From: a virus
Length of the DNA stretch: 44,672 nt
IMG/VR virus record: IMGVR_UViG_3300044951_001417
Coordinates: 1 to 44,672 of that record
Strand: one strand, 5' to 3'
Shown here piece after piece: positions 460 through 44,671 of the stretch. The number at the start of each line of letters is the position of its first letter. Within the stretch, counting starts at the first letter, position 1. Position numbers and translations under genes: made by a program. Under the pieces are notes generated by a model. The model did no database searches, was not told where the DNA came from, and saw only the letters and a program-made list of their open reading frames with translations.

Positions 460-908
460 AGATCCCTCAGCTGACTGATCTCTTCGGGTGTGAAGGAATA
501 GGGCAGCTGGCGCCGCCGCAGACAGTCTACCAGAGTTGGAACCTCAAGTCCAGTCGAAAAGTAGAGCTCGGCCCGTTCGATGAGCTGAGCTCGGGTCGCA
601 TGGCACACGACCAGAGCGGCGACCGCCCCATCCAGAAGGAGCCATTCCCGCTTGCAGCGCAGCAGGAACCACGACTGCCCACCAGCGCGCCGCCGGCGGA
701 AGTGCCAGACCCGCTGCTGGGGGGTGAAGTGTTCAATCCGGACGACGGTATCGGCCCCAACCGGCCACGAACGCAGCCACTTGAGCTCGATCCAGCCCTC
801 GATGTAGTTGACGTCGGGCGTCCCGGGCAGGACTCGGTTTTCAACGGCCATCGCCCCAATGGGCTTCAGGAGCTTCACCAGCTCCTGCCGCATGTTGGAT
901 TCGCTCAC
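456..908 (-). CDS. VRR-NUC-like PD-(D/E)XK nuclease
   Basis: A 150-residue protein starting at GTG 908, whose start overlaps the dCMP deaminase stop (GTGA). Residues 28-44 contain PGTPDVNYI followed by EGWIELKW, matching the GxPD...ExK core of VRR-NUC and related PD-(D/E)XK nucleases: the Asp of PDV, and the Glu and Lys of IELKW, would be the metal-binding and catalytic residues. Small stand-alone VRR-NUC proteins are common in phage replication modules, where they act as structure-specific or Holliday-junction nucleases. The C-terminal half is unremarkable. The position between deaminase and primase supports a DNA-metabolism role, but the substrate is unknown. Confidence 0.7.
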   Translation of the reverse strand: MSESNMRQELVKLLKPIGAMAVENRVLPGTPDVNYIEGWIELKWLRSWPVGADTVVRIEHFTPQQRVWHFRRRRAGGQSWFLLRCKREWLLLDGAVAALVVCHATRAQLIERAELYFSTGLEVPTLVDCLRRRQLPYSFTPEEISQLRDL

Positions 909-1429
909 CTCGTGGGCACCGTCAGCGTCTCGACGCCGCCCTCCTTCAGCATCTGCTTGGACGTCTCGTCGATGTGGTAGTGGACTCCGGCGCCGACACC
1001 CGGGAACGGGCGGTCCGAGCCGATGATTTTCACGATGCCCGCCTGAATCAGCGCGCGAGCGCAGTCCGCGCAGGGTGTCGGCATGAAGTTCATGAAGGCC
1101 CAGCAGCCCTCTGTCTTCACACCGATGCGTGCGGCGTTGAAGATGGCGTTCCGCTCGGCGTGCTCCACGAACTGGTACTTCAGCGGGCGTGCCCAGCGGA
1201 CCGGGTCGAGAGTGTTGGTCTGGACCAGCTGGAGACGGCCGTGGAACGCCTCGACTTCGATCTGCTCCCGCTCACGCACGCCGCGGGGGAAGCCATTGAA
1301 TCCCATCGAGACGACGGTCATGCTGTTGGGCTCTACGAGGATGCAGCCGACCTTGGTTGAGGGGTCCTTGGACCAGCCAGCAACAGAATCAGCCAGAGCG
1401 ATCATGCGAGTGAACCACTGGTTATTCAC
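905..1429 (-). CDS. deoxycytidylate (dCMP) deaminase
   Basis: A 174-residue zinc-dependent deaminase that converts dCMP to dUMP. The signature is intact: HAE at 90-92 (His90 zinc ligand, Glu92 proton shuttle) and PCADC at 119-123 (Cys120 and Cys123 zinc ligands). The length is normal for the ComE/dCMP deaminase family. The start is GTG 1429, preceded by GAGGAG with 7-nt spacing and overlapping the end of the upstream gene by 8 nt. Its product dUMP feeds thymidylate or hydroxymethyl-dUMP synthesis, which matters because a TS-fold protein and an hmdU-kinase/pyrophosphorylase homologue are encoded in the same operon. Long inserted segments around residues 52-85 are typical of phage and bacterial dCMP deaminases. 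Confidence 0.92.
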   Translation of the reverse strand: MNNQWFTRMIALADSVAGWSKDPSTKVGCILVEPNSMTVVSMGFNGFPRGVREREQIEVEAFHGRLQLVQTNTLDPVRWARPLKYQFVEHAERNAIFNAARIGVKTEGCWAFMNFMPTPCADCARALIQAGIVKIIGSDRPFPGVGAGVHYHIDETSKQMLKEGGVETLTVPTR

Positions 1430-1799
1430 GACGGAACTCCTCGATCAGGGGGAGCGCAGCCAGCACGCCGGCGAGATCGCCGAAGTTGTCGGCCACTTGG
1501 TGCATCATCTCGGCGAACCGCTGGCCTTTCTCGTTGACCAGCAGGATCTTCTTCCCGTGGGCGTACGCGAAGCCCAACTCGAAGGCGAGATTGGCGTAGC
1601 CCGGGTTGGTGACCTGCATGTAGGCGATCACGATGTCGCAGTCCAGCAAGTTGGCGAGGTCCTGCTGCGTGTAGAACTTCGGATCGTGCAGCTTGTGCTG
1701 GCTGGGGTCGAAGACGTCCGCGTCAGGGCGCAGTCGCCTGACCTCGGTCGCAACGATGTCCTGCCAGTCGCCGAAGCCGCCGCAGAGGTAGATCTTCAT
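1422..1799 (-). CDS. nucleoside 2-deoxyribosyltransferase-fold protein (first of two)
   Basis: 125 residues starting with MKIYLCGGF, the beta1/loop typical of nucleoside 2-deoxyribosyltransferase (NDT) and DNPH1-like enzymes. The C-terminal half has a DIVIAYM strand, a likely catalytic Glu in FELGFAYA (the ELGxA motif), and KKILLV, all characteristic of the fold. I chose ATG 1799 because it overlaps the upstream stop as ATGA; an in-frame start at 1814 lies inside the upstream gene. Family members break or transfer N-glycosidic bonds of deoxynucleosides or deoxynucleotides. In this operon the protein probably acts in nucleotide salvage or in making or removing a special nucleotide. The substrate cannot be read from the sequence. 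Confidence 0.75.
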   Translation of the reverse strand: MKIYLCGGFGDWQDIVATEVRRLRPDADVFDPSQHKLHDPKFYTQQDLANLLDCDIVIAYMQVTNPGYANLAFELGFAYAHGKKILLVNEKGQRFAEMMHQVADNFGDLAGVLAALPLIEEFRRE

Positions 1800-2101
1800 T
1801 GGTGCGTTCCCCATTCGCTGTTGATGTACTCCACGAGCGTCTCGAAGAGCAGGGCGCCCTTCGGGTCGTTCATCTCCGCGGAGCGCTCAGCCTTGCGGGT
1901 CAGGAAGTCGCAGATCTCACTGACCACGACGGAGACTCCCTCAGAGATGAGCCTGCTGGTCTCGATGTCGGCATCAGCGCCACGCCAGCCGTCCTTCCAT
2001 GCGGATTCGAGCCCTCCCACGTGCGGGCAGTCCTCCAACAGGACCCGATTGTGCCGAGCCTGCTGCCCGTCGGCGTAGGCGTTTCGGAGGTCGTCGCTCA
2101 T
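1796..2101 (-). CDS. small protein with Rmf/CrpP-like motif
   Basis: A 101-residue protein of no certain function. The N-terminal 45 residues (AYADGQQARHN, then CPHVGGLESAWKDGWRGAD) resemble the short ribosome modulation factor / CrpP-type pattern: Gly and Ala spaced in a helix, a Cys/Pro turn, then an AWxxGW helix. The remainder is helical and charged. Start ATG 2101 overlaps the polymerase stop (ATGA) and the stop overlaps the NDT-like gene (ATGA), so translation is tightly coupled. Rmf binds ribosomes in stationary phase, and small phage proteins with this motif are usually uncharacterised. The Rmf comparison is motif-level inference. Confidence 0.6.
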   Translation of the reverse strand: MSDDLRNAYADGQQARHNRVLLEDCPHVGGLESAWKDGWRGADADIETSRLISEGVSVVVSEICDFLTRKAERSAEMNDPKGALLFETLVEYINSEWGTHQ

Positions 2102-3981: not shown

Positions 3982-4735
3982 GGAAGCGCTCCATCGCGAG
4001 GCGCCAGTCGCCCGCCTTGATGCGGCCCAGCTGCTTGCGCGCCTCATTGGGCTTTTCGTCCACGAGCGCGCCGACTTCCTGCAGGGGAACGAACACGTGG
4101 CGCGTCCACTTGCTCTTGAGGCCCAACGGAGCACTCAGGGCTGCCGTCATCTCCAGATCGGCGTCCAGACCGCGGGGTTTGGCCTCTCCCGTGCTGTAGG
4201 GGTCTCCAGCGCGATCCTGCAGGGAGTTCTGCATCAGCATGCAGACACGCTCTTCCGGGGCACTCAGGTCCATGTGCTGGATCGTGAGCTTCCCGAGCCG
4301 CTTCCTGCTTGCCAGAGCCAGCAGCTCGTGCAGGATCGACAGCTGCAGCCCCAGCTGGCCGGCGACGCCCACCATCGGGTCCGAGTTCGCCACGACAGCA
4401 TACGACTCCAGCCGTCCCTCGTCCGAGATGACCGACCGCATCACGAGGATGGGCGTGCTGAACAGGAACTGGCCGGTCCCCGTCAGGATCTGTTGGGCCA
4501 CCTGCGGGATCCCCGCTTCGGCGGTCCCCAGACTGGCGTAAGCCTGATGCAGCTGCTTGGCCGGGTTCAGCTTGTACCCGGGCCAGAACAGCAGGCGCTC
4601 GTCGGGCTTCTCGAAGGTCACGCTGACCGGCTGCCGGTAGACCAGCTGCCCGTCCTTGCGCTCACCGCGGGCGTACAGGAGATCCAGAATCGCCGGCATG
4701 GCGGTCTGGAGGTTCCGCGCCTTGATCACTTCCAT
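3974..4735 (-). CDS. thymidylate-synthase-fold protein lacking the catalytic cysteine
   Basis: 253 residues; ATG 4735 is chosen because it lies just inside the end of the upstream gene. The order of segments follows the thymidylate synthase fold: P..V.F..PDERLLF (residues 36-50), KLNPAKQL (55-62), then a hydrophobic strand, DEGRLESYAVVANSD (105-119, with the Ser-Asp pair of TS), GLQLSILHELL (129-139), and the GKLTIQH strand (148-154). However, the Pro-Cys-His/Asn active-site segment is missing: the strand reads STPILVM and the only cysteine is Cys165, downstream. The middle of the fold is also shortened. Classical TS or dUMP hydroxymethylase chemistry is therefore unlikely. It may be a structural, regulatory or altered-chemistry partner of the adjacent hmdU-kinase-like gene. 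Confidence 0.65.
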   Translation of the reverse strand: MEVIKARNLQTAMPAILDLLYARGERKDGQLVYRQPVSVTFEKPDERLLFWPGYKLNPAKQLHQAYASLGTAEAGIPQVAQQILTGTGQFLFSTPILVMRSVISDEGRLESYAVVANSDPMVGVAGQLGLQLSILHELLALASRKRLGKLTIQHMDLSAPEERVCMLMQNSLQDRAGDPYSTGEAKPRGLDADLEMTAALSAPLGLKSKWTRHVFVPLQEVGALVDEKPNEARKQLGRIKAGDWRLAMERFLG

Positions 4736-5535
4736 TGGTAGCTCCTCGTCGGCTTGGTGTTGCGGGCCCACACGTAGAAGAGGCTCACGGCCCGCTGTGC
4801 TTCGCTCATCTCCCATGCTGGGTCGATCGAAAGCAGGGCGCGCATCATGCGGACCGCGGCCTGCTGGTCTTGTGGGCGCGTATGGCTCAGCTGTTGACCC
4901 AACAGGATCCCAACTCCCCCGCATGCAGCGGAGGTCGGAGCAGCCCACGTCATGCGATCCTTGGCCTGCAGGAGCCACCCGGTGCGGCCGAGATCGCAGA
5001 CGATCTCGTACGCCAACGTGGGTGTCAGACCCTTGATGAGCTGGAGGGCTTGCCAAGCCTCAGCCATCGACCCTTCAAGCTGACAGACGACGTCCGGACG
5101 CTCAGGGATCTGCTCCATGATCTTCGCGACCGCTGCGAGTGTAGCAGGTCCTTTGTAGAGTGTCCAGCGCGAATTGAACAGCGGGAAAGTCTGCGGCCCG
5201 AGCGCACTGAGCATCATGCCCGTGTCGTACCCCTGCCTGATCATCATCTCCCGCAGGTACTCCCCGGTTTCGACCCTTCCGAAGCACCTGAAGGCGATGA
5301 TCGCCAGCAGGAGCTTCTCGGGGTCCGAGATCCGGTCCCGGACCGCCGCGCGGAACCAGACGGTCGTTGGATCGTCCTCCCGGCGGATGTTCGGGAACCA
5401 GAAATACCGCAGGCGTGGGTCCTCGGTCAGGTGACCCTTCTCGCCGTACTCCTTCTTGGTACGAACGAGCTCCCGCTCTCTCACGAAGCGCTCGAAGCGC
5501 TCCAGCTCAACGATCGTCGTCTGTGCCGGGGTCAT
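4726..5535 (-). CDS. 5-hydroxymethyl-dU DNA kinase / alpha-glutamyl/putrescinyl thymine pyrophosphorylase superfamily protein
   Basis: 269 residues from ATG 5535 (GAGG 9 nt upstream). The N-terminus carries the hallmark of this DNA-base-hypermodification family: FERFVRERELVRTKKEYG (14-31), a LTEDPRLRYF block (36-45) and FPNIRREDD (47-55). A helix-hairpin-helix-like segment follows (IKGLTPTLAYEIVCDLG, 167-183), then a Gly-rich turn AACGGVGILLG (203-213), and a C-terminal EAQRAV...YVWARN block matching the family's last conserved helix. Known members phosphorylate 5-hydroxymethyluracil in DNA or replace the pyrophosphate with an amino group donor, as in phages with putrescinyl- or glutamyl-thymine. 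Which of these activities applies here is not decidable by eye. It overlaps the TS-fold gene downstream. Confidence 0.75.
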   Translation of the reverse strand: MTPAQTTIVELERFERFVRERELVRTKKEYGEKGHLTEDPRLRYFWFPNIRREDDPTTVWFRAAVRDRISDPEKLLLAIIAFRCFGRVETGEYLREMMIRQGYDTGMMLSALGPQTFPLFNSRWTLYKGPATLAAVAKIMEQIPERPDVVCQLEGSMAEAWQALQLIKGLTPTLAYEIVCDLGRTGWLLQAKDRMTWAAPTSAACGGVGILLGQQLSHTRPQDQQAAVRMMRALLSIDPAWEMSEAQRAVSLFYVWARNTKPTRSYQWK

Positions 5536-5740
5536 TGAGAAACACCTCATCCATGTGCTGCAGGACGAAGAGCTTCAGGGCCTCGCACGCACCCAGCAGC
5601 TCGATGTCGTTCAGGTTCATAAAGGAGACACCCGCGTTCGCCACGCCAACCGTCAGCATGATCGCGCCAGTCGCATTTCGCAGGTTGTCCTGCATGCGTG
5701 CTCGCTGCTCCTCGATCTGGAACTGGCGGTCGTCAGGCAT
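5507..5740 (-). CDS. hypothetical small protein between RNR and hmdU-kinase-like gene
   Basis: 77 residues starting at ATG 5740, which shares a base with the RNR stop (TAATG). I do not recognise a family. It has an N-terminal charged helix (EEQRARMQDN), a small-residue hydrophobic stretch AIMLTVGVANAGVSF (26-40) and an acidic C-terminus ending in GTDDDR. The hydrophobic part is too short and polar-flanked to call a membrane segment with confidence. Its last 29 nt overlap the downstream gene. Tight coupling to the ribonucleotide reductase suggests a role in the same nucleotide pathway, but nothing in the sequence shows it. Confidence 0.65.
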   Translation of the reverse strand: MPDDRQFQIEEQRARMQDNLRNATGAIMLTVGVANAGVSFMNLNDIELLGACEALKLFVLQHMDEVFLNDPGTDDDR

Positions 5741-33356: not shown

Positions 33357-33860
33357 TCACCTCAGAATGCTGAATTTCGTAGGTCCACCCGCCGGTGCGT
33401 GCGTGACTGCAAGGTAACACGCCCGCGCGCCCGCGCCACCGTAGTCCCAAGCAGCGACCTGCCAGTTGCGGAAATAGGTGCCGCCGGGGTTGCCCACATC
33501 GAACAGGACGCCCGTGTCGCCGGTCTTGTTGATGAGCGCGAGCTCCCCAGACGTCAGCTCATGGCTGTGCCATCCGGCAGCGGCGGGCGTCCCGGTGTCA
33601 TTGAAGATCAGCGTCCCGCCCAAATAGATCAGGCGCTGGTAGCTCGCAGCCTTGGTCTTGGTGTAGCCGTCGTGATACCAGTAGAACGTCGCGGCCGAGA
33701 TGACGTCCGTGCCGATGGCCGAGGTGTCGATGGTGGCCTCGCCGTAGGAGTCCCTCGTGTTGAGGTTGTCGAACAGAGAAACCAGCGCCACGCCGTTGGT
33801 GTTGGCCCCGTAGCCCGTGGTCTCGTCTCGGGCGCTGGTGGTGACGGGGTAATTAGGCAC
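33357..33860 (-). CDS. virion protein with beta-sandwich-like domain, paired with the collagen-like fibre
   Basis: 167 residues from GTG 33860, overlapping the fibre gene by 8 nt. It looks like a jelly-roll or beta-sandwich domain ([45 protein letters not shown], then [10 protein letters not shown]), similar in style to structural domains that bind carbohydrate or protein on virus surfaces. No exact family is identified. Since it directly follows the collagen-like protein it is probably a partner or a knob of that fibre. Confidence 0.6.
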
Positions 33861-35619
33861 TGCGCACCCCGGTCAGAGCGAGTGTGACCATCGTGACGGT
33901 AGTCGCGCTGTCCACATTGAACCGCAGGATGTCGCCCTTTGCCACGGCGATCGACAGCGAGCTGCCCTGTGCCTTGGTAGCCGAGCTGATCGCGGGCGTC
34001 ACGATGCTGTCCGCGTCGACCGGCGGGTGGTTCGCGTAGGTGTCCTTCCAAACGTCGACCGTGATCGACCCGCTCTGGTCTGCGACCATCGTCCAGCCGG
34101 TGATCGTCATCTTGAACGGACAGACGTAGAATCCCTTGGCGCCAGTCGTGATCGCGACCCCACCACCGTCGAACGCAACCTGAAGAGCCTCTTCGGTCGC
34201 AGCAACGCCGTCCTTGATCAGCAGGCCATCCACAGTCACACCGGTGTCCGAGTCCGGAATCTCACTGACTGACGGACCGATCAGCCCCATCGTGCCCTTT
34301 ACCTGATTGGCAACGATCCACGTGCTGAAATCGAACCGATCCAAGTCGTAGTCGTAGATCAGTGAGCCAGCGGGGACTGGTACACCGGACTCGTCAAACA
34401 GCCCACCAAAGAACACGGAGGGAAACGCATCCGGCATGTCCATGCCGACGTATACATCCTTGCCGTACAAATCAGCTTGGAGACTGACCGACTCGTCAAA
34501 CTGGGCTGACCCACCAGTGACCTGCAGCGCGATCATCGGGAGCAGCGGGTCCGCAGGCGGGAGGAGAATCTTCCACCCGCGGGAGGCGACGATCTTCTCG
34601 TTGGTCCGATCCCACTGTACCCGCGGAGGTGTAACGAAGGGGGCGACTGCGGGGCCGAACTCGATGTACGGATTCCCGAGCGCGTCACGCGAGTTGATCT
34701 TGAGGTTGTTCGGAGTGAACTCCACGCGATCGAGGGTGGCGTTGTACTCCATCGCTCGGTCTGCCACAGAGCTGAACTTGAGCAGCGGAAGGACCCCCGT
34801 CCCGAGCGCCCCATTCAGCAGCAGGTTGGCCGCCTGCCAGTCCACGATGCCCTGATAATCGAGGTCGTCGGCCACGACGGCGCCCGTGCGTCCGAAGACG
34901 CTCGTGACGCCGCCGCTCTCCGCATCCCACTGGGTGTTGTAGTCCGTCCCGTCGATCTTCTTGAGCACCTGCCCTGCAGCGCCCCCCGTGGGCACGCCCG
35001 GGCCTGCGGCTCCCGGATCACCCTGCGGTCCGGGATCGCCCTGCGGCCCTGCGTCTCCTTGCGGCCCTGCGTCGCCCTGCGGCCCGACAAGCGACACGCC
35101 CGCCGGCCACACCCCGGCTGCTTTGGGCCCAAAGTAGGTGCTCGTGGCCGTGTTCAGGTAGAAGTCGCCGTTGACTCCCTGCGTCGTCGGGTTGACCACC
35201 CCAGAGAGCCACGTCTTGCCGTCGGCGCCAGTCGGCCCGGGGTCGCCTTGCGGTCCGGGGTCTCCCTGCGGACCCGGATCACCCTGCGGTCCGGGGTCCC
35301 CTTGAGGTCCGGGATCGCCCTGCGGCCCGTCGGGGCCCGTCGGGCCCACCAGAACCACGCCCGCCGGCCACACCCCGGCTGCTTTGGGCCCGAAGTAGGT
35401 GCTCGTGGCCGTGTTCAGGTAGAAGTCGCCGTTGACTCCCTGCGTCGTCGGGTTGACGATGCCCGAGAGCCACGAATTGCCGTCTTCGCCCGCCGGACCG
35501 GTCGGTCCGAGCACGGTCGAGGCAGGCACCGTCACGTGGACCACGTCGTCATTCACCGTGACTTCGACTGTGTCTTGGTCGATGACCTTGATCACGTAAG
35601 TCTGGTTGATGATGTCCAT
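33853..35619 (-). CDS. collagen-like fibre protein with repeated modules
   Basis: 588 residues from ATG 35619 (shares a base with the upstream stop, TAATG). Residues 37-70 start [10 protein letters not shown] and two collagen-like stretches follow, rich in GPQGDP triplets. Two nearly identical modules (about 34 residues, [20 protein letters not shown] and [15 protein letters not shown]) flank the triplets. The remaining 360 residues are beta-rich, ending in ALTGVRSA. Collagen-like phage proteins trimerise and form surface fibres. The gene lies between head-neck proteins and capsid-associated genes, so it could be a head fibre or neck whisker rather than a tail fibre. Confidence 0.8.
35095..35196 (-). 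repeat. 102-bp direct repeat in the fibre gene, copy A
   Basis: This stretch is 101/102 identical to 35356-35457 (copy B), 261 bp away. Both copies are in the same frame and encode the WPAG...STATNLYFDG-direction module of the fibre (read on the minus strand as [14 protein letters not shown]...AAGVWPAG). The near identity at the DNA level points to recent duplication or ongoing recombination. Confidence 0.85.
35356..35457 (-). repeat. 102-bp direct repeat in the fibre gene, copy B
   Basis: Partner of 35095-35196, with a single mismatch (a G/A difference in the GPK codons). The interval between the copies holds the GPQGDP collagen-like array, so unequal exchange between copies would remove or duplicate the array. 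Confidence 0.85.
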
Positions 35620-37451: not shown

Positions 37452-38417
37452 TTAGGCGGGGATGACGCCCGGCGCGACGGCCAGACCCTTCTCGGTGAAC
37501 AGGGCCATGCCCGAGTACCACTTGACGCGCGTGATCCGCTCGTCCTTGGTCTCCGAGGTGCCCACGTCCTCGACCACGATGCCCGCGGCTTCCTCGGCGG
37601 TCAGGCCGGCGACGCCGCAGCAGCGCGAACCGTCGTCGAACGTACCGCAGATGACCGAGCTCGCGTTGGTCGCGTTGCCGTAGGTCTGGTTGATCGGAAT
37701 GTAGTCGTTCTTGAAGACCGGGACCTCCGAGTACGACATGACCTTGGCACCGCTCGGCATTTCGACGACTTCCATGATGGCGGCGCCACCCAGCGCACGC
37801 AGCAGCGCGCGATAGGCCCGACGTTCGCGGGAGTTCATCATGATGTAGTCGGCGTTGCCGTCCTTCGCGGTCACGAGGTCCAGCAGCTCATCGAGGATCG
37901 CGAGCGACAGCGCGCTGCCGTCCGTCGCCGGGGTCGTCTTCTGACCCGACGCGCACAGCAGGAGCAGACCATCGAACTGGTTCGCCGTGCCGCTGTTGCC
38001 GTTGACCATCAGCCACTGGTACAGGCGCCCGCAGTGCTTGGCCTTGCTGGCGACCTGAATCGCGGTCTGGTCGTTGCCGTCCGAGCTCCGGGTGGCCTGA
38101 ATCAGACCATTCACTTCGGCGTCGCCGATGATCGTGGTCAGGCCGCTGGTGTACTGCGTGAAGGTGGCAGCGTTCTTGGCCTCGGCCGAACCGCTGGTCA
38201 GCGGGTTCGCATCGCCCGAGCCCAGAACCGTGCCGATGCCGGTCAGGCCGACGCCGCCCAGCACGTTCTCACGGTTGTAGGCGAGCGCGTTGCCCGAGAT
38301 GCCGTCGAACGGGAACACCTCGAAGATCTGGTTGACAGTGATGACGTCCTCGATGACGCCCGCGACGAGCATGTCCTGCGCCAGCTTGGCGCTTTCCGCC
38401 AGAGTTACGGAAGCCAT
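37452..38417 (-). CDS. major capsid protein, HK97 fold
   Basis: 321 residues from ATG 38417, preceded by GAGGAGG; the longer in-frame start at 38474 lies in the leader. MASVTLAESAKLAQDMLVAG, then the VFPFDGISGNALAYNREN segment, a central AILDELLDLVTAKDG-style helix (the spine helix region), and the C-terminal GVAGLTAEEAAGIVVEDVG with TRVKWYSGMALFTEKG match phage capsid proteins of the HK97-fold group whose N-terminus reads L...AKL.QD.L..GVIE. It lies immediately after the scaffold gene and its own promoter, consistent with very high expression. No protease domain is fused. Confidence 0.85.
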   Translation of the reverse strand: MASVTLAESAKLAQDMLVAGVIEDVITVNQIFEVFPFDGISGNALAYNRENVLGGVGLTGIGTVLGSGDANPLTSGSAEAKNAATFTQYTSGLTTIIGDAEVNGLIQATRSSDGNDQTAIQVASKAKHCGRLYQWLMVNGNSGTANQFDGLLLLCASGQKTTPATDGSALSLAILDELLDLVTAKDGNADYIMMNSRERRAYRALLRALGGAAIMEVVEMPSGAKVMSYSEVPVFKNDYIPINQTYGNATNASSVICGTFDDGSRCCGVAGLTAEEAAGIVVEDVGTSETKDERITRVKWYSGMALFTEKGLAVAPGVIPA

Positions 38418-38527
38418 TTCGTGGCCCTCCTCAGTTGGGTAAAACCTCAGTTCACAACACGAGCACTGCGTCACGCAGCGGGTCGCCCGAACCTTGGATC
38501 ACCCTCGGTGGGCAGAGTCTGGTCCTC

Positions 38528-38558: not shown

Positions 38559-39338
38559 TTACCCGCGCTGACGAGCCGCCAGCCCCGCGGTGATCTTCTC
38601 CCGCGGGCTCATGTCCTCAACCTTGCGCCCACTGGGCGTCGGACGCCCACCCGAGGGGGTCCCGCCCCCACTGGGCTTGTCGCTCTTGAAGAAGGGCAGG
38701 AACTGCTCCTGCGTGCGCATCTCGCCCACAAGCTCCTTGATGGTCATCGGACCGGTCCCAACGCCCGAATAGCGGGGGTTGCCGTCCGGACCCTTGACCT
38801 GCACAACGAAACGGCCATTCTCCTCGGCGACCTGCACCTGCCGCTCCAAGAACGGCAGCACGAGGTCCGCGTTCACGGCGCCGGCCTCGGCGAGCGCCGC
38901 GCGCGCCTCGCTCGTGAACAGGTGCGTGTTCAGGTGGCCCGTCAGGAAGCCGGTACGGTCCTGCAGCCCCTTGATTTCCTTCTGGTGTGCCTCGGCCATC
39001 GCCCGCTGGGCGGCCTGCACAGCCTGCTGGAGCTCTTCGGGACCCTTCTTGCCCTTGGTCGCCTCGGCGATCACCTTCTCGATACCCTGCGCGATCTCCT
39101 CGGGCGTCGAGCCGTAGGTGCTCAGGGCGGACAGATCGACGACCTTCTTCGAGATCGTACGGACTTCGTCGCGCGACTTCGCCAGCGCCCCCTGCAGGCC
39201 CTGAATCGCGCTGACCGCGGACTTCACGCCCGGATCCTCGGCGCGCAGGACGAACTTGCCGTCCTTCTCGGCGTACAGGCCGCGGAAATCCACGGGAACG
39301 CCCTCGATGCTGTCCAAAACCGGCTTGAACTCGAACAT
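38559..39338 (-). CDS. capsid scaffolding protein
   Basis: 259 residues from ATG 39338 with GGAGG upstream. Charged and helical: a basic/acidic coiled-coil section at about 100-150 (PEELQQAVQAAQRAMAEAHQ) follows an N-terminal globular part (LDSIEGVPVDFRGLYAEKDG), and the C-terminus is basic and Pro/Gly-rich (RPTPSGRKVEDMSPREK). This is the layout of phage scaffold proteins, which have helical cores and a basic C-terminal capsid-binding end. It lies directly upstream of the capsid gene. The N-terminal motif AEKDGKFVLR is common in such proteins. Confidence 0.8.
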   Translation of the reverse strand: MFEFKPVLDSIEGVPVDFRGLYAEKDGKFVLRAEDPGVKSAVSAIQGLQGALAKSRDEVRTISKKVVDLSALSTYGSTPEEIAQGIEKVIAEATKGKKGPEELQQAVQAAQRAMAEAHQKEIKGLQDRTGFLTGHLNTHLFTSEARAALAEAGAVNADLVLPFLERQVQVAEENGRFVVQVKGPDGNPRYSGVGTGPMTIKELVGEMRTQEQFLPFFKSDKPSGGGTPSGGRPTPSGRKVEDMSPREKITAGLAARQRG

Positions 39339-39533: not shown

Positions 39534-42500
39534 CTAGTCCCCGTCAACCTCTTCCACGGTGAAGGTGTGGATCCCCTTCACCTTCTGGTAGCCCGTGACC
39601 TTGTACTTGGTCCCCTGCATCAGCAGGACCTCGTATTCCTCCTCGATCGTCGACTGGGCCATGATCATGCGCCCGTTGTGCTGCTTGGCGACGTGGAAGA
39701 CAACCTGCTCACCCTTCTTCCCGATCTTCTGGGCGGCATCGTTCGCGAAATCGCGTGCTACCATCAGGCTGGTCGAGGATGAGCTGTGCGCCGGCAGGGA
39801 GAAGTGGGCGCCCTGCTTGGTCAACAGCTTAATCTGGTCCGCCCTCAATCCGACTCCTCGGTAAACGACCCCGTCATACACCGGCATGGTACTGAGCGCC
39901 TCATTCAGGTGCTCCAGTGCCTGCTTGGGTGGGACCTTGGGCTTGTAGAGGTTGAAGTCAGTCGTTTTGTAGGCCGTCTGCGGCCTCGTGGTGTTCGGGT
40001 TCTGCAGCGTGCTCAGCACGGCATCGTGGTCCGTCCACGTCATGATCGCTTCTTTGTACTTCTTCGGGGCCAACCCGGTCCACGTGTCCTGTTGCGCAGG
40101 GTTCCACCCGCGCCCGGGTGTGCGAGCCGACTGCGGGTGTCTCAGGAGCAGGTCTTCCTGTGAAATAACACGGAGCCCCCCGCCGGGCACATCCTCAACC
40201 AGATCGTCAAGTGGGACACCAAGACGGAAAACGTCACCAGCAATCGGGCCCAACAGGAGATCCTGCTCCGCTCCGGGGAGCTCTCGCATGAAGTCCTCAT
40301 CGAACAGGGGATTGAACTTCTTCCCCTTCGCTCGAATGCGCTCGTCGAGGGACTTCTCAAGTGAGGTTCGGTTGCGCTCCATGTAGGCCGCACGGCGCGC
40401 GTCGATGTTCGACTGCCGGTCGAGCTGGGCCTGCCAATCAGAGGTCTTCGGGGTCTCCGTGGTCTTGAGGCCGTTGCGCAGCTGCTGATCGGCCTTGGCC
40501 CGCTTCCCTTCCAGATCGTCTGACCACAGCTCTTTTTCGTCCAACACATCCTGAGCGGGGTTGGCAGCCACAGTGGGCCGAACTTCGACCGGCTTCGCCG
40601 GCTCCTTCTTGAGGCGAGCCGCTTCGGCCTTCTCGGCCTTGATGCGCGCCTTCTCGGCCTTCTCGGCCGCGACCTTCTTCGTGTAGTCGTCGAACTCTTT
40701 GCGCTTGGCCGCGGCGATGGCCTTCTGCTTCTCCAGTTCGGCCTTGGCCTTGGCCTTGGCTTCGACCTTGGCTGCCCTGACCTTGGCCGCCTCAACCTTG
40801 GCCGCCTGAACGCGAGCCGCTTCGACCTTGGCCGCCTGAACGCGAGCCGCCTCCTTGACTCGCGCAGCTTCGACCTTGGCTGCCTTGGCGGCTTCGATGC
40901 GCGCCGCTTCGAGCTTTTCAGCCTGAACGCGAGCCGCTTCGAGCGTGGCCTCAGCCTTCTTCTGTGCAGCGGCCTCGATTTTGGCTGCCTTGACGCGAGC
41001 CGCTTCGAGCGTGGCCGCAGCCTTCTTCTCGACATCGACCTTCGGCTTCTTGGGGGCAGGATCCTTCGGCTTCTTGGGAGCGGGCGCCGGCAGGTGATCG
41101 ACCTCTTCCAACTCCAAGACGTATGTCCCATCCGGGGTGATGTCCGCCGGCTTGGTCATCCGGTACTTGGTCCCCTTCATCAGCAGCGCTTCCGACTCGT
41201 CCTGCAGGGCGTAGTCCATGATCAGGCGCGAGTTGTGCTGCTTCTTGATGACGTAGACCACGCGCCTTCCGTCGTCGCGCTTGTTATAGATCTGCATCTT
41301 CGACTGAGACGAGCCAGCAAACATGTGGGCTGTCTGGAGCTCGACTGACGCGGAGCTGTGGTGAGGCAGCTCGAAGCTCCCGGCCTCCAAGAGTGCGTCC
41401 AAGTCGTCTGCCCACATCCCGACGCCTCGGTAGACCTCGCCATCGTAGACCGGCATGGTGCTGAGGGCCTGATTCAGGTGCTCCAGCGCGACCTCCGGTG
41501 CGTACTTGGGCTGGTACTTCTTCGGCTTCGAGAGATTCTTGTAGCCGTGCTGCGGCCGTTTCGTCTTGGGGTTCTGGAGGGTGGAGATCGCCGCATCCTG
41601 CCCTGCCCACGTGCGGATGGCGTCAATGTCGTCAGCCGTGGCCCGCAGCTGCCAAACGTCCTGCATTTCGGGCGTCCAGCCTGTGCCGGGCTGCCTGACG
41701 ACGCGCGCGTAGCGCTGCCGCAGCTCGAAGTTGCTCTTGGAGACCAGCCCACGTACGGGATCGTGCTCTATGAGCCTGTCCAGCTGGAAGCCAGCCCGGA
41801 AAAGGTCCGCCGTCTCCCCAGTCAGCAGCATGTCCTGCTGCGCGGGGGACAGGGAACGCACGAAGGCCTCATCCTCAAGCGGGTCAATCAAACCGGCCCG
41901 CTGGACTCGTTCTGCGAGATCTGCCTCCAGCTCCGGCCTGTGGCGCTCGATGTAGGCCTGCCGGCGCTGATCCATCTCCACACGCCGATTCCGCTGGAAC
42001 TCCCAGTCGGACTCAGTTGGGGTGTCGACGGTCATCAAGTCCTCACGGACCGCTTGATCTGCCACGTAGCGCCGGTGCATGAGGTCGCGATCCCACAGCT
42101 CCTTCTCGTCGAGCAGGTCCTGAGGCGCGCGCGTCTCCTTGAGCGCCTTCAGGCGGCTCAGCTCAGCCTGACGGGCGATTTCAGCCTGCGAGCCCTGCAC
42201 CTCTGCATTCAGCTTCGCGATCTTGGCGTCGGCCTCAGTGCGCAGGCGGGCCTTCTCGGTGATCTGGGCCTGCTGGACCTCTGCATTCAGCCGCTTGATC
42301 TTGGCCTCGGCTTCCGCCCGCTGGACGTCAGTTTTGGCCGCGGCGACCTCGTCGTTCAGCTTGGCGATCTTGGTGTCGGCCTCTGCCCGCAGGCGCACAG
42401 CCTCTTCGGCCTGTGCCGCCTTCACTTTCTCGTTCAGCCGCGCGATCTTGGCCGTGTTCGCCTCGCGGAGGCGTGCGATCTCCAGATTCTTCTGGTGCAT

Positions 42501-43721
42501 GGCCCGAATGTCGTCTGTCGTGCCGTACTTGGCCTTCAGCTCAGCGATCGTCAGCTGGCGCCCGTGCAGATCGACGTACTGGTCCATCGCCAGCCCGTTG
42601 CGGAACAGATCGCCGCGAGTGGGCCCAAGGACGTCATCCTGAAAGGACTTCGGCTGCTTGCGCAACCAAGCGTCGTACGTGGTGTCCCCGGGCAGGGTCC
42701 CGACGTTCTCAGCCACCCACTGCTGCCGGCGGCTCTTGATGAGGGCGTTCCGCTCATCGACAGACAGCTGGGACCAAGCCCCCTTGCCGAGTTCGGCCTT
42801 CGCCTCAGCCCGAAAGTCCTTCTCCCGCATCCTCCGGGTCCGTTTGTCCCGCACGAACGGGCGGTCCGGCATCATGGCCTCGATCCCATCCCCGTCCAGC
42901 TTGGCGATCATGACCGTCCGGCAGCGAGGATGGAAGGGAGGGCGCCTCGGCGAGCCTTCAATCCGCGGATGCGGCACGTTCTCCATGTCCCCGCCCACGA
43001 TCAGGGCGTCGTAGTGCCCGTCCCGGGCCCGGCAGATCGGGCTCGTGCGTCCATCGAGCGTGGCGACAGCCATCAGGGCCTGAATCACGTCCGCATTCTC
43101 GACGAACACCTCGGTGCGGGCCGTGTTGCTGGCGTGGTTGACCATCGTGCGGGCGATCGCGTCCGCGTTCTGCCGTGTGAGCTCCTGTGCCTTCATCACG
43201 CGGTTGATGATCTCGGGAGTGCCCTCTCCCTGCACCATGCCTGCCTTCACAGCACCCGAGATGCGCCTGAGATCGGCTTCCTCCAGATCCACGAACCACT
43301 GCAGCAGGTCGGTCGCCATGTCGACCCCGCCGAAGGGCGTCTCGCGAGCGAGCTCCTGCACAGTCGCGACACTCGGGGCCGCAAAGTTGATCTCCACTGG
43401 GACTGCATTCGAGAGAGCCTTCACCGTGGCGTTGATGGTGTTCTCAACGATGTCGTCCGAGAGGCCTCCCAGCTGACTGCCAACGCCCTGAATCAGCGAG
43501 CTGCGCATGCGCTTGATCTCGCCGACCATGTTCTGCCAGCGTTCGGTGGTGAAGTCGACAACCCCGCCCGTCTTCTCCATCCTTTGGGCAATACGGACGT
43601 TCAGCTCGGCGTCCGCCTTGCGCAGCTCGCCGAGGATGTTCTGCACCTCACCCTGCGTCATCCTCTGCAGGTTGACCGTGTGCTGCAGAAGCGAGTCGTA
43701 GAGCTCTTCGTTCGCAGCCAC
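39534..43721 (-). CDS. MuF-type minor head protein fused to two ADP-ribosyltransferase-like modules
   Basis: 1395 residues from GTG 43721. Residues about 150-275 are an SPP1 gp7/MuF head-morphogenesis domain (MVNHASNTARTEVF, TSPICRARDG, HPRCRTVMI). Then come a coiled coil (411-530), module 1 (536-875), an Ala/Lys/Glu-rich helix (895-1045) and module 2 (1058-1393). Each module ends in an R-S-E type mono-ADP-ribosyltransferase fold: VYRGVG (Arg765, Arg1288), HHSSAS / AHSSSSTS, and ESEALLMKGTKY / EYEVLLMQGTKY with ExE at 842-844 and 1362-1364. MuF proteins enter the procapsid, so the transferase parts could be packaged and injected. The target is unknown. Confidence 0.85.
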   Translation of the reverse strand: MAANEELYDSLLQHTVNLQRMTQGEVQNILGELRKADAELNVRIAQRMEKTGGVVDFTTERWQNMVGEIKRMRSSLIQGVGSQLGGLSDDIVENTINATVKALSNAVPVEINFAAPSVATVQELARETPFGGVDMATDLLQWFVDLEEADLRRISGAVKAGMVQGEGTPEIINRVMKAQELTRQNADAIARTMVNHASNTARTEVFVENADVIQALMAVATLDGRTSPICRARDGHYDALIVGGDMENVPHPRIEGSPRRPPFHPRCRTVMIAKLDGDGIEAMMPDRPFVRDKRTRRMREKDFRAEAKAELGKGAWSQLSVDERNALIKSRRQQWVAENVGTLPGDTTYDAWLRKQPKSFQDDVLGPTRGDLFRNGLAMDQYVDLHGRQLTIAELKAKYGTTDDIRAMHQKNLEIARLREANTAKIARLNEKVKAAQAEEAVRLRAEADTKIAKLNDEVAAAKTDVQRAEAEAKIKRLNAEVQQAQITEKARLRTEADAKIAKLNAEVQGSQAEIARQAELSRLKALKETRAPQDLLDEKELWDRDLMHRRYVADQAVREDLMTVDTPTESDWEFQRNRRVEMDQRRQAYIERHRPELEADLAERVQRAGLIDPLEDEAFVRSLSPAQQDMLLTGETADLFRAGFQLDRLIEHDPVRGLVSKSNFELRQRYARVVRQPGTGWTPEMQDVWQLRATADDIDAIRTWAGQDAAISTLQNPKTKRPQHGYKNLSKPKKYQPKYAPEVALEHLNQALSTMPVYDGEVYRGVGMWADDLDALLEAGSFELPHHSSASVELQTAHMFAGSSQSKMQIYNKRDDGRRVVYVIKKQHNSRLIMDYALQDESEALLMKGTKYRMTKPADITPDGTYVLELEEVDHLPAPAPKKPKDPAPKKPKVDVEKKAAATLEAARVKAAKIEAAAQKKAEATLEAARVQAEKLEAARIEAAKAAKVEAARVKEAARVQAAKVEAARVQAAKVEAAKVRAAKVEAKAKAKAELEKQKAIAAAKRKEFDDYTKKVAAEKAEKARIKAEKAEAARLKKEPAKPVEVRPTVAANPAQDVLDEKELWSDDLEGKRAKADQQLRNGLKTTETPKTSDWQAQLDRQSNIDARRAAYMERNRTSLEKSLDERIRAKGKKFNPLFDEDFMRELPGAEQDLLLGPIAGDVFRLGVPLDDLVEDVPGGGLRVISQEDLLLRHPQSARTPGRGWNPAQQDTWTGLAPKKYKEAIMTWTDHDAVLSTLQNPNTTRPQTAYKTTDFNLYKPKVPPKQALEHLNEALSTMPVYDGVVYRGVGLRADQIKLLTKQGAHFSLPAHSSSSTSLMVARDFANDAAQKIGKKGEQVVFHVAKQHNGRMIMAQSTIEEEYEVLLMQGTKYKVTGYQKVKGIHTFTVEEVDGD
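39543..39935 (-). other. ADP-ribosyltransferase-like module 2 (C-terminal)
   Basis: Residues about 1263-1393 of the MuF fusion. It carries VYRGVG (Arg1288), an AHSSSSTS loop (1311-1318) and EEYEVLLMQGTKY (Glu1362 and Glu1364 as the ExE pair). This copy has the canonical Ser-Thr-Ser loop and an E-x-E turn and is predicted catalytically complete. Confidence 0.75.
41097..41498 (-). other. ADP-ribosyltransferase-like module 1
   Basis: Residues about 742-875 of the MuF fusion. VYRGVG (Arg765), HHSSASVE (S-S-A-S instead of S-T-S) and DESEALLMKGTKY (Glu842 and Glu844). The loop varies from the usual Ser-Thr-Ser, so activity may differ from module 2. Confidence 0.7.
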
Positions 43722-44671
43722 TACACACCCATCCCGAGATCCATCGTCTCGTTCTGCAGCAGGGCGGCGTCCGCCTCTGCGTCATAGTCCTCATCCAGCA
43801 GCCCAGCCCGCTTGAGCTCGTTCGTGTAGGCAACGCGCGAGATGGCGCGGTTCTTGAAGCTCTCCACGAGGGCACGCAGGCCTTCTCCGCCCGCGGGGGG
43901 CGCTGCGAAGCTCGTCTTGATGTCCACAGAGCCTCCTGAGGGCTTGCCCATCCACTTGGCGGTCAGTTCGAGCGCCGTTTCTACCGTGTCGCAGAAGCGC
44001 AGTGTGACGTCCTGCAGCGGGCTCGTGGCCTCGGCCGTATCGAGGCTGCGTGCGGTCGCTGTCTCGCGATTGGGCCGCTTCTTCAGGAACTCGGCGCCAT
44101 AGGAGCCCATCTGCTCTTCGAGGTCCTTGATCTCAGTCCGCCCCACACCGAGCGCCACGCCGCTGTGCTCGACGTAATAGGCCCGTGCCTGCGTGTCCGG
44201 CATGTAGATCCAGCGGTGCGGACCTACGACGAGCTTCTGGGTCTCGTCAGTGGCACCTGAGAGGGCCAAGATAGGGAACCGAGCGACCGTGAGACACGCT
44301 CGCTGGTCGCTCATGCTCTGCCAGTGGGCGATGTTCAGGTCGGCGAGGTCCTCGATCGAGGGCTTGCCCAGCATGAAGTCCTTGCGGTCGCTGTAGAAGG
44401 TCACGATCGGGATCTGGTCGATCTCCATCAGGTACTGCTCGACGATCGACCAAACGACCTTGCGCGTCTTGGCCCTGACGGCCTGCCAGAGCGTGACCTC
44501 CACGCCCGAGGGCGTCAGGACCATCTGGCGGATCTGCTCGACCGGAACGATCGCGAAACCCTCACGCCGACTGACCGTCTCGTAGAAGCGCACTTCCTGC
44601 AGCTGCTCCCGGCCATCGACGACCTTCGCCTCGGCAAAGAAGAGCCTCTCCGGGCACAGATGGACCCAGTA
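43721..44671 (-). CDS. portal protein, DUF4055-type (5' end cut by window edge)
   Basis: The frame is open to the right edge (317 codons shown), so the N-terminus is missing. Sequence at the edge reads YWVHLCPERLFFAEAKVV, followed by LWQAVRAKTRKVVWSIVEQYL and VTFYSDRKDFMLGKPSIEDLADLNIAHWQS, which match the DUF4055 portal-like family (PE, then W....PPL.dla.lN..HyqssSD). The rest carries coiled-coil and clip-like parts ending in ADAALLQNETMDLG. It precedes the MuF gene with a one-base overlap (TAG/GTG), the usual portal-MuF order. The stem would form the DNA channel. Confidence 0.8.
   Translation of the reverse strand, partial: YWVHLCPERLFFAEAKVVDGREQLQEVRFYETVSRREGFAIVPVEQIRQMVLTPSGVEVTLWQAVRAKTRKVVWSIVEQYLMEIDQIPIVTFYSDRKDFMLGKPSIEDLADLNIAHWQSMSDQRACLTVARFPILALSGATDETQKLVVGPHRWIYMPDTQARAYYVEHSGVALGVGRTEIKDLEEQMGSYGAEFLKKRPNRETATARSLDTAEATSPLQDVTLRFCDTVETALELTAKWMGKPSGGSVDIKTSFAAPPAGGEGLRALVESFKNRAISRVAYTNELKRAGLLDEDYDAEADAALLQNETMDLGMGV

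What the first reader, a model, noticed from the sequence alone, without database searches (positions are those of the whole stretch)
39534..43721. MuF minor head protein with two tandem ADP-ribosyltransferase-like modules
Seen: an SPP1 gp7/MuF domain at residues 150-275, then two modules of about 335 residues (536-875 and 1058-1393), each ending in an R-S-E-type ART motif set (VYRGVG; HSS-type loop; E-x-E before LLM.GTKY). Known: MuF proteins associate with the portal inside procapsids, and MuF polymorphic toxins from temperate phages of Firmicutes carry single C-terminal toxin domains; T4 injects the ART Alt. Inference: this phage packages a double ART effector that enters the host with DNA and modifies host proteins or RNA. 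A MuF with two diverged ART copies separated by a long Ala/Lys helix is, to my knowledge, not described.
Basis: partly seen in the sequence, partly recalled or inferred. Interest (0 to 1): 0.87.

Follow-up and report, generated by a model that had tools for sequence, protein, structure and literature searches.

The report
Phage head protein carrying two ADP-ribosyltransferases
A phage known only from metagenomes carries, inside a protein that normally sits at the portal of the virus head, two copies of an enzyme domain that tags host molecules with ADP-ribose; single-copy versions are already known (one relative has been found in purified virions), so this is a new two-copy variant of a known kind rather than a new kind of system.

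Summary
Window 43721-39534 (-) is one 1395-aa ORF directly behind the portal gene: MuF core (Pfam Phage_Mu_F, residues 154-272), a coiled stretch, module 1 (536-876), an Ala/Lys stretch, module 2 (1058-1395). The modules are 47% identical, and each ends in an R-S-E ADP-ribosyltransferase (ART) domain with R, S-x-S and E-x-E intact. AlphaFold2 models of both match the Arg-specific ARTs Vis and Tre1 (VIA Z about 16). A near-identical contig from another metagenome argues against an assembly artefact. The kind is known: MuF-ART fusions are published, and the 1192-aa MuF-VIP2 protein of Stenotrophomonas phage AXL1 was found by mass spectrometry in purified virions. Among 89 related MuF proteins, 16 carry an ART (at least 6 gains or losses); only this phage carries two. 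New here: both modules arose by duplication of one cassette, and each holds a degenerate copy of the conserved MuF C-terminal motif (FQDDVLG..LFR.G), so the protein holds three. Best reading: a virion-carried, Alt-like double ART effector. Injection, activity and targets are inferred.

The parts
39534..43721 (-). whole gene: 1395-aa MuF protein with two ART modules
   Evidence: PHROG 241 head morphogenesis E 1e-83; intact in L002
42522..43721 (-). MuF core, residues 1-400, alignable with whole short MuF proteins of Mesyanzhinovviridae (37-43% identity)
42906..43262 (-). Phage_Mu_F Pfam domain, residues 154-272
42528..42692 (-). MuF C-terminal motif, residues 344-398 (TTYDAWLRKQPKSFQDDVLGPTRGDLFRNG...), the end of short MuF proteins
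   Evidence: motif HMM 86.4 bits
42117..42521 (-). charged coiled stretch, residues 401-535
   Evidence: composition
41094..42116 (-). module 1, residues 536-876 (helical part, motif copy, ART)
41766..41864 (-). degenerate copy of the MuF C-terminal motif in module 1, residues 620-652
   Evidence: 9.3 bits vs best 8.1 of 2000 shuffles; profile-profile together with module 2 E 7.5e-7
41094..41579 (-). ART domain 1, residues 715-876; R765, S790/S792, E842, E844
40551..41093 (-). Ala/Lys-rich stretch between the modules, residues 877-1057
39537..40550 (-). module 2, residues 1058-1395 (helical part, motif copy, ART)
40194..40298 (-). degenerate copy of the MuF C-terminal motif in module 2, residues 1142-1176
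   Evidence: 14.2 bits vs best 8.1 of 2000 shuffles; hhalign probability 92, E 7.5e-7
39537..40013 (-). ART domain 2, residues 1237-1395; R1288, S1314/S1316, E1362, E1364
43721..44671 (-). portal protein (C-terminal part; record ends inside the gene), immediately upstream
   Evidence: PHROG 145 portal E 1e-66
38559..39338 (-). scaffolding protein, next gene downstream
   Evidence: PHROG 206 E 7e-37
37452..38474 (-). major capsid protein
   Evidence: PHROG 212 E 6e-67

Best explanation
The protein is a minor head protein of the SPP1 gp7/MuF family. Its N-terminal 400 residues place it inside the procapsid at the portal (inferred from MuF proteins and the gene order portal-MuF-scaffold-capsid). 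Its C-terminal 860 residues carry two ART modules as cargo, made by duplication of one cassette. The few copies per virion enter the host with the DNA, and the modules transfer ADP-ribose from NAD to arginine residues of host proteins, as T4 Alt does. Both ARTs are expected to be active; because their substrate-contacting ARTT loops differ (YALQDESE vs STIEEEYE), they probably act on different targets or sites. Shown here: gene, domains, catalytic residues, predicted fold, duplication, patchy distribution. Shown elsewhere for a relative: presence in virions. Inferred: injection, activity, arginine specificity, targets.
For: MuF domain and head-gene context; two ART folds matching Vis (Z 16.1) and Tre1 (Z 15.9-16.0) (Foldseek E 3.5e-10); invariant R, S, E, E across 22 aligned ARTs including both modules; E-x-E is the signature of arginine-targeting enzymes such as Ia (PMC7827354); both copies free of stops and frameshifts, dN/dS about 0.46 between them (near saturation); the two modules are sister sequences (support 100/99); MuF-ART relative AXL1 gp16 in CsCl-purified virions, 48 peptides, 117 spectra (PMC9206674); structure search of viral proteins returns head morphogenesis, minor capsid and portal proteins with ARTs, and Alt proteins.
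Against: No activity, virion or injection data for this phage, which is known only from metagenomes. The aromatic residue at position 3 of the ARTT loop is Leu/Ile here, unlike the described R-S-E pattern and unlike the related phage ARTs, so substrate recognition is unusual or weak. The Y-x-x-L-N motif upstream is only partly kept.
Confidence: 0.72

Rival explanations
1. The ARTs act as a toxin or anti-defence effector rather than a takeover switch: the few injected copies disable a defence system or a competing phage or plasmid in the newly infected cell (AcrIF11-like or Tre1-like logic). This shares the delivery route of the best explanation and differs in the target.
For: Nearest solved relatives by profile and fold include Tre1, an interbacterial toxin acting on FtsZ Arg174; phage-encoded ARTs against CRISPR exist (PMC12421852, listed); patchy gain and loss (6-8 changes on the MuF tree) fits an arms race.
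Against: No immunity or eraser gene (ADP-ribosyl hydrolase, macro, NADAR) was found among the window genes tested, as a free toxin might require, though the record is partial and short immunity genes are hard to see.
Confidence: 0.35
2. The ARTs work before packaging, in the producing cell, on capsid, portal or host factors, or protect the packaging apparatus; delivery is not their role.
For: Late head-operon position; PMC9503650 raises protection of portal or terminase as an alternative.
Against: A relative is virion-associated at substantial coverage; most related MuF proteins assemble heads without any ART (73 of 89).
Confidence: 0.12
3. One or both modules are catalytically dead and serve as a structural or binding domain.
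For: Low Pfam scores, module 1 none; non-aromatic ARTT position; duplication could free one copy.
Against: All four catalytic positions kept in both copies while the rest has diverged to 47% identity.
Confidence: 0.15
4. The two-module gene is an assembly artefact.
For: Metagenome origin; modules are repeats.
Against: Modules are only 57% identical in DNA, far too different for a misassembly of one copy, and a contig from another metagenome has the same layout at 99.95% with no gaps.
Confidence: 0.01

Closest known systems
MuF-zincin-VIP2/ART minor head proteins of Pamexvirus and relatives (AXL1 gp16, Xanthomonas phages Mallos and YB23, PaMx28, AAT-1)
   Same: Same kind of MuF core and position behind the portal, C-terminal R-S-E ART, protein of 1000-1300 aa, virion-associated in AXL1
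   Different: They have one ART (about 25% identical to these) and a metalloprotease-like HELGH stretch; this one has two ARTs, no HExxH, and two extra copies of the MuF-tail motif
MuF-VIP2 fusions of actinophages (Microbacterium phage Percival gene 4, Arthrobacter phage Yang gene 4)
   Same: MuF-like protein with C-terminal ART, predicted virion component (PMC7302621)
   Different: Single ART, about 670 aa, very distant MuF part
T4 Alt
   Same: Head-packaged, injected R-S-E ART; profile and structural matches to Alt proteins
   Different: To my knowledge Alt has no MuF domain; it is not a tandem
Polyvalent proteins with multiple ARTs (Tox-ART-HYD2; up to 12 copies, PMC5512222)
   Same: Several ARTs in one presumably injected phage protein
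   Different: Other ART clade (H-Y-D active site), not built on MuF
Vis toxin and Tre1 (PDB 4xzj, 6dre)
   Same: Best fold and profile matches to the ART domains; arginine-type E-x-E
   Different: Bacterial effectors not carried by a virion

Membership tests
MuF (SPP1 gp7-like) minor head proteins | Phage_Mu_F domain | tested here: met
   PF04233, 46.9 bits vs cut-off 29.6
MuF (SPP1 gp7-like) minor head proteins | gene between portal and scaffold/capsid genes | tested here: met
MuF (SPP1 gp7-like) minor head proteins | binds portal, present in virion | not testable with these tools
   shown for SPP1 gp7 (PMC5576092); virion presence shown for AXL1 gp16 (PMC9206674)
MuF polymorphic toxins (Jamet 2017) | C-terminal extension of 100 aa or more with a toxin-type domain | tested here: met
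   two ART domains
MuF polymorphic toxins (Jamet 2017) | carried by a temperate phage | tested here: inconclusive
   no integrase or repressor among the window genes scanned, but the record is partial
MuF polymorphic toxins (Jamet 2017) | immunity gene downstream | tested here: inconclusive
   next gene is the scaffold, about 195 bp further on; no candidate seen
R-S-E class ART, arginine-type | R, S-x-S and E-x-E positions | tested here: met
   both modules
R-S-E class ART, arginine-type | ART fold | tested here: met
   predicted models: Z 16.1 to Vis, rmsd 3.4-3.9 A over 177-179 residues, both modules
R-S-E class ART, arginine-type | aromatic residue at position 3 of the ARTT loop (usual, contacts substrate; not part of the catalytic triad) | tested here: not met
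   Leu839 and Ile1359 by the X-X-phi-X-X-E-X-E pattern; the same review shows SdeA and SidE also lack it
R-S-E class ART, arginine-type | NAD-dependent transfer to arginine | not testable with these tools
   needs an assay
Pamexvirus-type MuF-zincin-ART proteins | HELGH-type stretch between MuF and ART | tested here: not met
   no HExxH in the window protein; present in 11 of the ART-bearing relatives
Pamexvirus-type MuF-zincin-ART proteins | falls in their MuF clade | tested here: not met
   nearest MuF is L011, a short protein without ART, local support 98 (FastTree, long branches)

The most novel reading that the evidence does not exclude
The unit that was duplicated is a cassette of a MuF-tail motif plus ART, so each ART carries its own anchoring tag for the portal or capsid interior, and the phage delivers two ARTs with different targets from one anchored polypeptide. 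If so, the MuF C-terminal motif FQDDVLG..LFR.G is a transferable packaging tag.
Probability: 0.2. Interest if true: 0.65.

Novelty: new variant of a known kind. Interest (0 to 1): 0.42.

Why it matters
It shows that the MuF-ART cargo layout, seen so far with one ART per protein, can be extended by tandem duplication, and that the cargo is gained or lost repeatedly on the same MuF scaffold. The triplicated MuF-tail motif gives a concrete, testable candidate for the element that ties cargo to the inside of the head, an open question for MuF proteins. A phage-delivered enzyme of known fold with unknown bacterial targets is also a direct route to host proteins that phages find worth modifying.

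Tried and rejected
Direct searches for other two-ART MuF proteins: module 2 against 50,697 phage records gave nothing even at E 0.1; whole protein, two-module alignment and ART-pair alignment in IMG/VR returned only near-copies of the same phage; GTDB genomes none. These scans use short conserved stretches and can miss distant relatives, so 'unique' is not claimed. A mixed ART alignment was too diverse for a scan. A weak match of the helical part to bacterial proteasome activator was dropped as a common helical arrangement. An assembly artefact was considered and rejected. A NADAR or other ADP-ribose eraser next to the gene was looked for and not found in the window. Whether the tail motif equals the Ct_MAD domain of PMC5576092 could not be checked (supplement not available).

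Full report
What is there. The window is a 44,672-bp IMG/VR virus record whose head genes run leftwards: portal 44671-43721, the gene in question 43721-39534, scaffold 39338-38559, major capsid protein 38474-37452. The gene has one open frame of 1395 aa, starting at a GTG that shares one base with the portal's stop codon. Its first 400 residues match complete minor head proteins of Mesyanzhinovviridae (37-43% identity) and contain the Phage_Mu_F domain (residues 154-272). Short relatives end about 50 residues after a conserved motif, FQDxVLGxxxgxLFRxGG; here 1000 residues follow.

The two modules. Residues 536-876 and 1058-1395 align over their whole length at 47% identity, with an Ala/Lys-rich stretch of 181 residues between. 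In DNA they are 57% identical, so the duplication is old; neither has a stop or frameshift, and dN/dS between them is about 0.46, with synonymous sites near saturation. In a tree with 23 other ART domains the two are each other's closest relatives (support 100/99), on a long stem. A second contig, from another metagenome, has the same layout with 4 mismatches in 8083 bp and no gaps.

They are ART domains. Module 2 passes Pfam's cut-off for ADP-ribosyltransferase exoenzymes, module 1 alone does not. Aligned with 20 ARTs from related phage proteins, both keep the four invariant catalytic positions: R765/R1288, S790/S1314, E842/E1362 and E844/E1364. The two-module profile finds Vis in the PDB at E 1.6e-4; a wider profile finds Tre1, Vis, SpvB-type and type III effector ARTs. 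AlphaFold2 models (mean pLDDT 78 each, most of the ART part 80-94) align with Vis at Z 16.1 and Tre1 at Z about 16 and by Foldseek at E 3.5e-10. Model coordinates were not at hand, so the NAD cleft itself was not measured. The ARTT loops differ between the copies (YALQDESE, STIEEEYE) and lack the aromatic residue that PMC7827354 describes as usual at position 3, while most related phage ARTs have it (for example SKYPGERE).

A repeated MuF-tail motif. The N-terminal part of each module holds a degenerate copy of the MuF C-terminal motif. A profile made from 77 other MuF proteins, without this phage, scores 14.2 bits in module 2 and 9.3 in module 1; the best of 2000 shuffled sequences reached 8.1. 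Profile-profile comparison gives probability 92, E 7.5e-7, score 40.5, against a best of 19.0 in 100 column-shuffled controls. None of the other MuF proteins examined has a convincing second copy. In the models this part is confident, helical with a hairpin (pLDDT 85-97). What the motif does is not known; that it ties proteins to the head interior is a guess.

How common. I collected relatives from IMG/VR, phage records and GTDB genomes. Of 89 distinct MuF cores, 16 carry an ART, and on the MuF tree the trait needs 8 changes, at least 6 on well-supported branches (FastTree). The nearest MuF to this one, L011, is short and has none. ART is almost the only cargo seen: of 18 complete proteins with 100 or more residues beyond the MuF profile match, 17 have an ART (this count includes near-copies of the window). 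Only the window phage has two. The sample is the set nearest to this MuF, not all MuF proteins.

Comparison with the literature. MuF-ART fusions are established: reviewed as head-packaged Alt/VIP2-family ARTs (PMC9503650), listed among MuF toxins of temperate phages (PMC5576092), and noted in Microbacterium phages (PMC7302621). In the group of the nearest cultured phages, AXL1 gp16 (1192 aa, MuF + VIP2) was found in CsCl-purified virions with 48 peptides and 117 spectra, and its authors point to T4 Alt (PMC9206674). Multiple ARTs in one injected phage protein are described for another ART clade (PMC5512222). I found no description of a two-ART MuF protein in three searches of an open-access library, so absence is weak evidence.

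Mechanism. Best supported is a portal-associated, packaged and injected double ART acting on host arginines early in infection. Shown: anatomy, predicted fold, conserved active sites, duplication. Shown for a relative: virion presence. Inferred: injection, activity, targets, different specificities. The target class (takeover of transcription or division versus defence) cannot be decided from sequence.

Verdict. A sound observation and a reasonable interpretation whose core is already published for single-ART relatives. It is a new variant of a known kind, with the repeated MuF-tail motif as the most interesting new detail.

Noticed in passing
L008 5206-5694 (-), L009 10812-11300 (-), also L014, L023, L028, L030, L042, L099, L106: A NADAR (YbiA-like, COG3236) gene lies on the opposite strand shortly downstream of the single-ART MuF gene in 9 of 16 MuF-ART loci and 0 of 57 loci of MuF without ART (Fisher p 1e-7, but the carriers form one MuF clade, so they are not independent). 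It may be an ADP-ribose eraser paired with the packaged ART.
   Followed up: partly
L008 405-3989 and most related MuF-ART proteins; L007 4368-6197: A metalloprotease-like HELGH/HEMGH stretch sits between MuF and ART in 11 relatives; Bordetella phage CN2 instead has an HEYAH stretch in an N-terminal extension of its MuF protein.
   Followed up: partly
window 4726-5550 (-), 905-1429 (-), 1422-1814 (-): 5-hmdU DNA kinase-like helical domain, a deoxycytidylate deaminase and a nucleoside deoxyribosyltransferase-like protein: the phage may modify its DNA bases.
   Followed up: no
window 33853-35619 (-): 588-aa tail-fibre-like protein with collagen repeats located between head and tail genes.
   Followed up: no
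L126 5998-7545 (+): MuF-ART protein of 516 aa in the genome of Mesobaculum littorinae (Roseobacteraceae), with a very distant ART.
   Followed up: no
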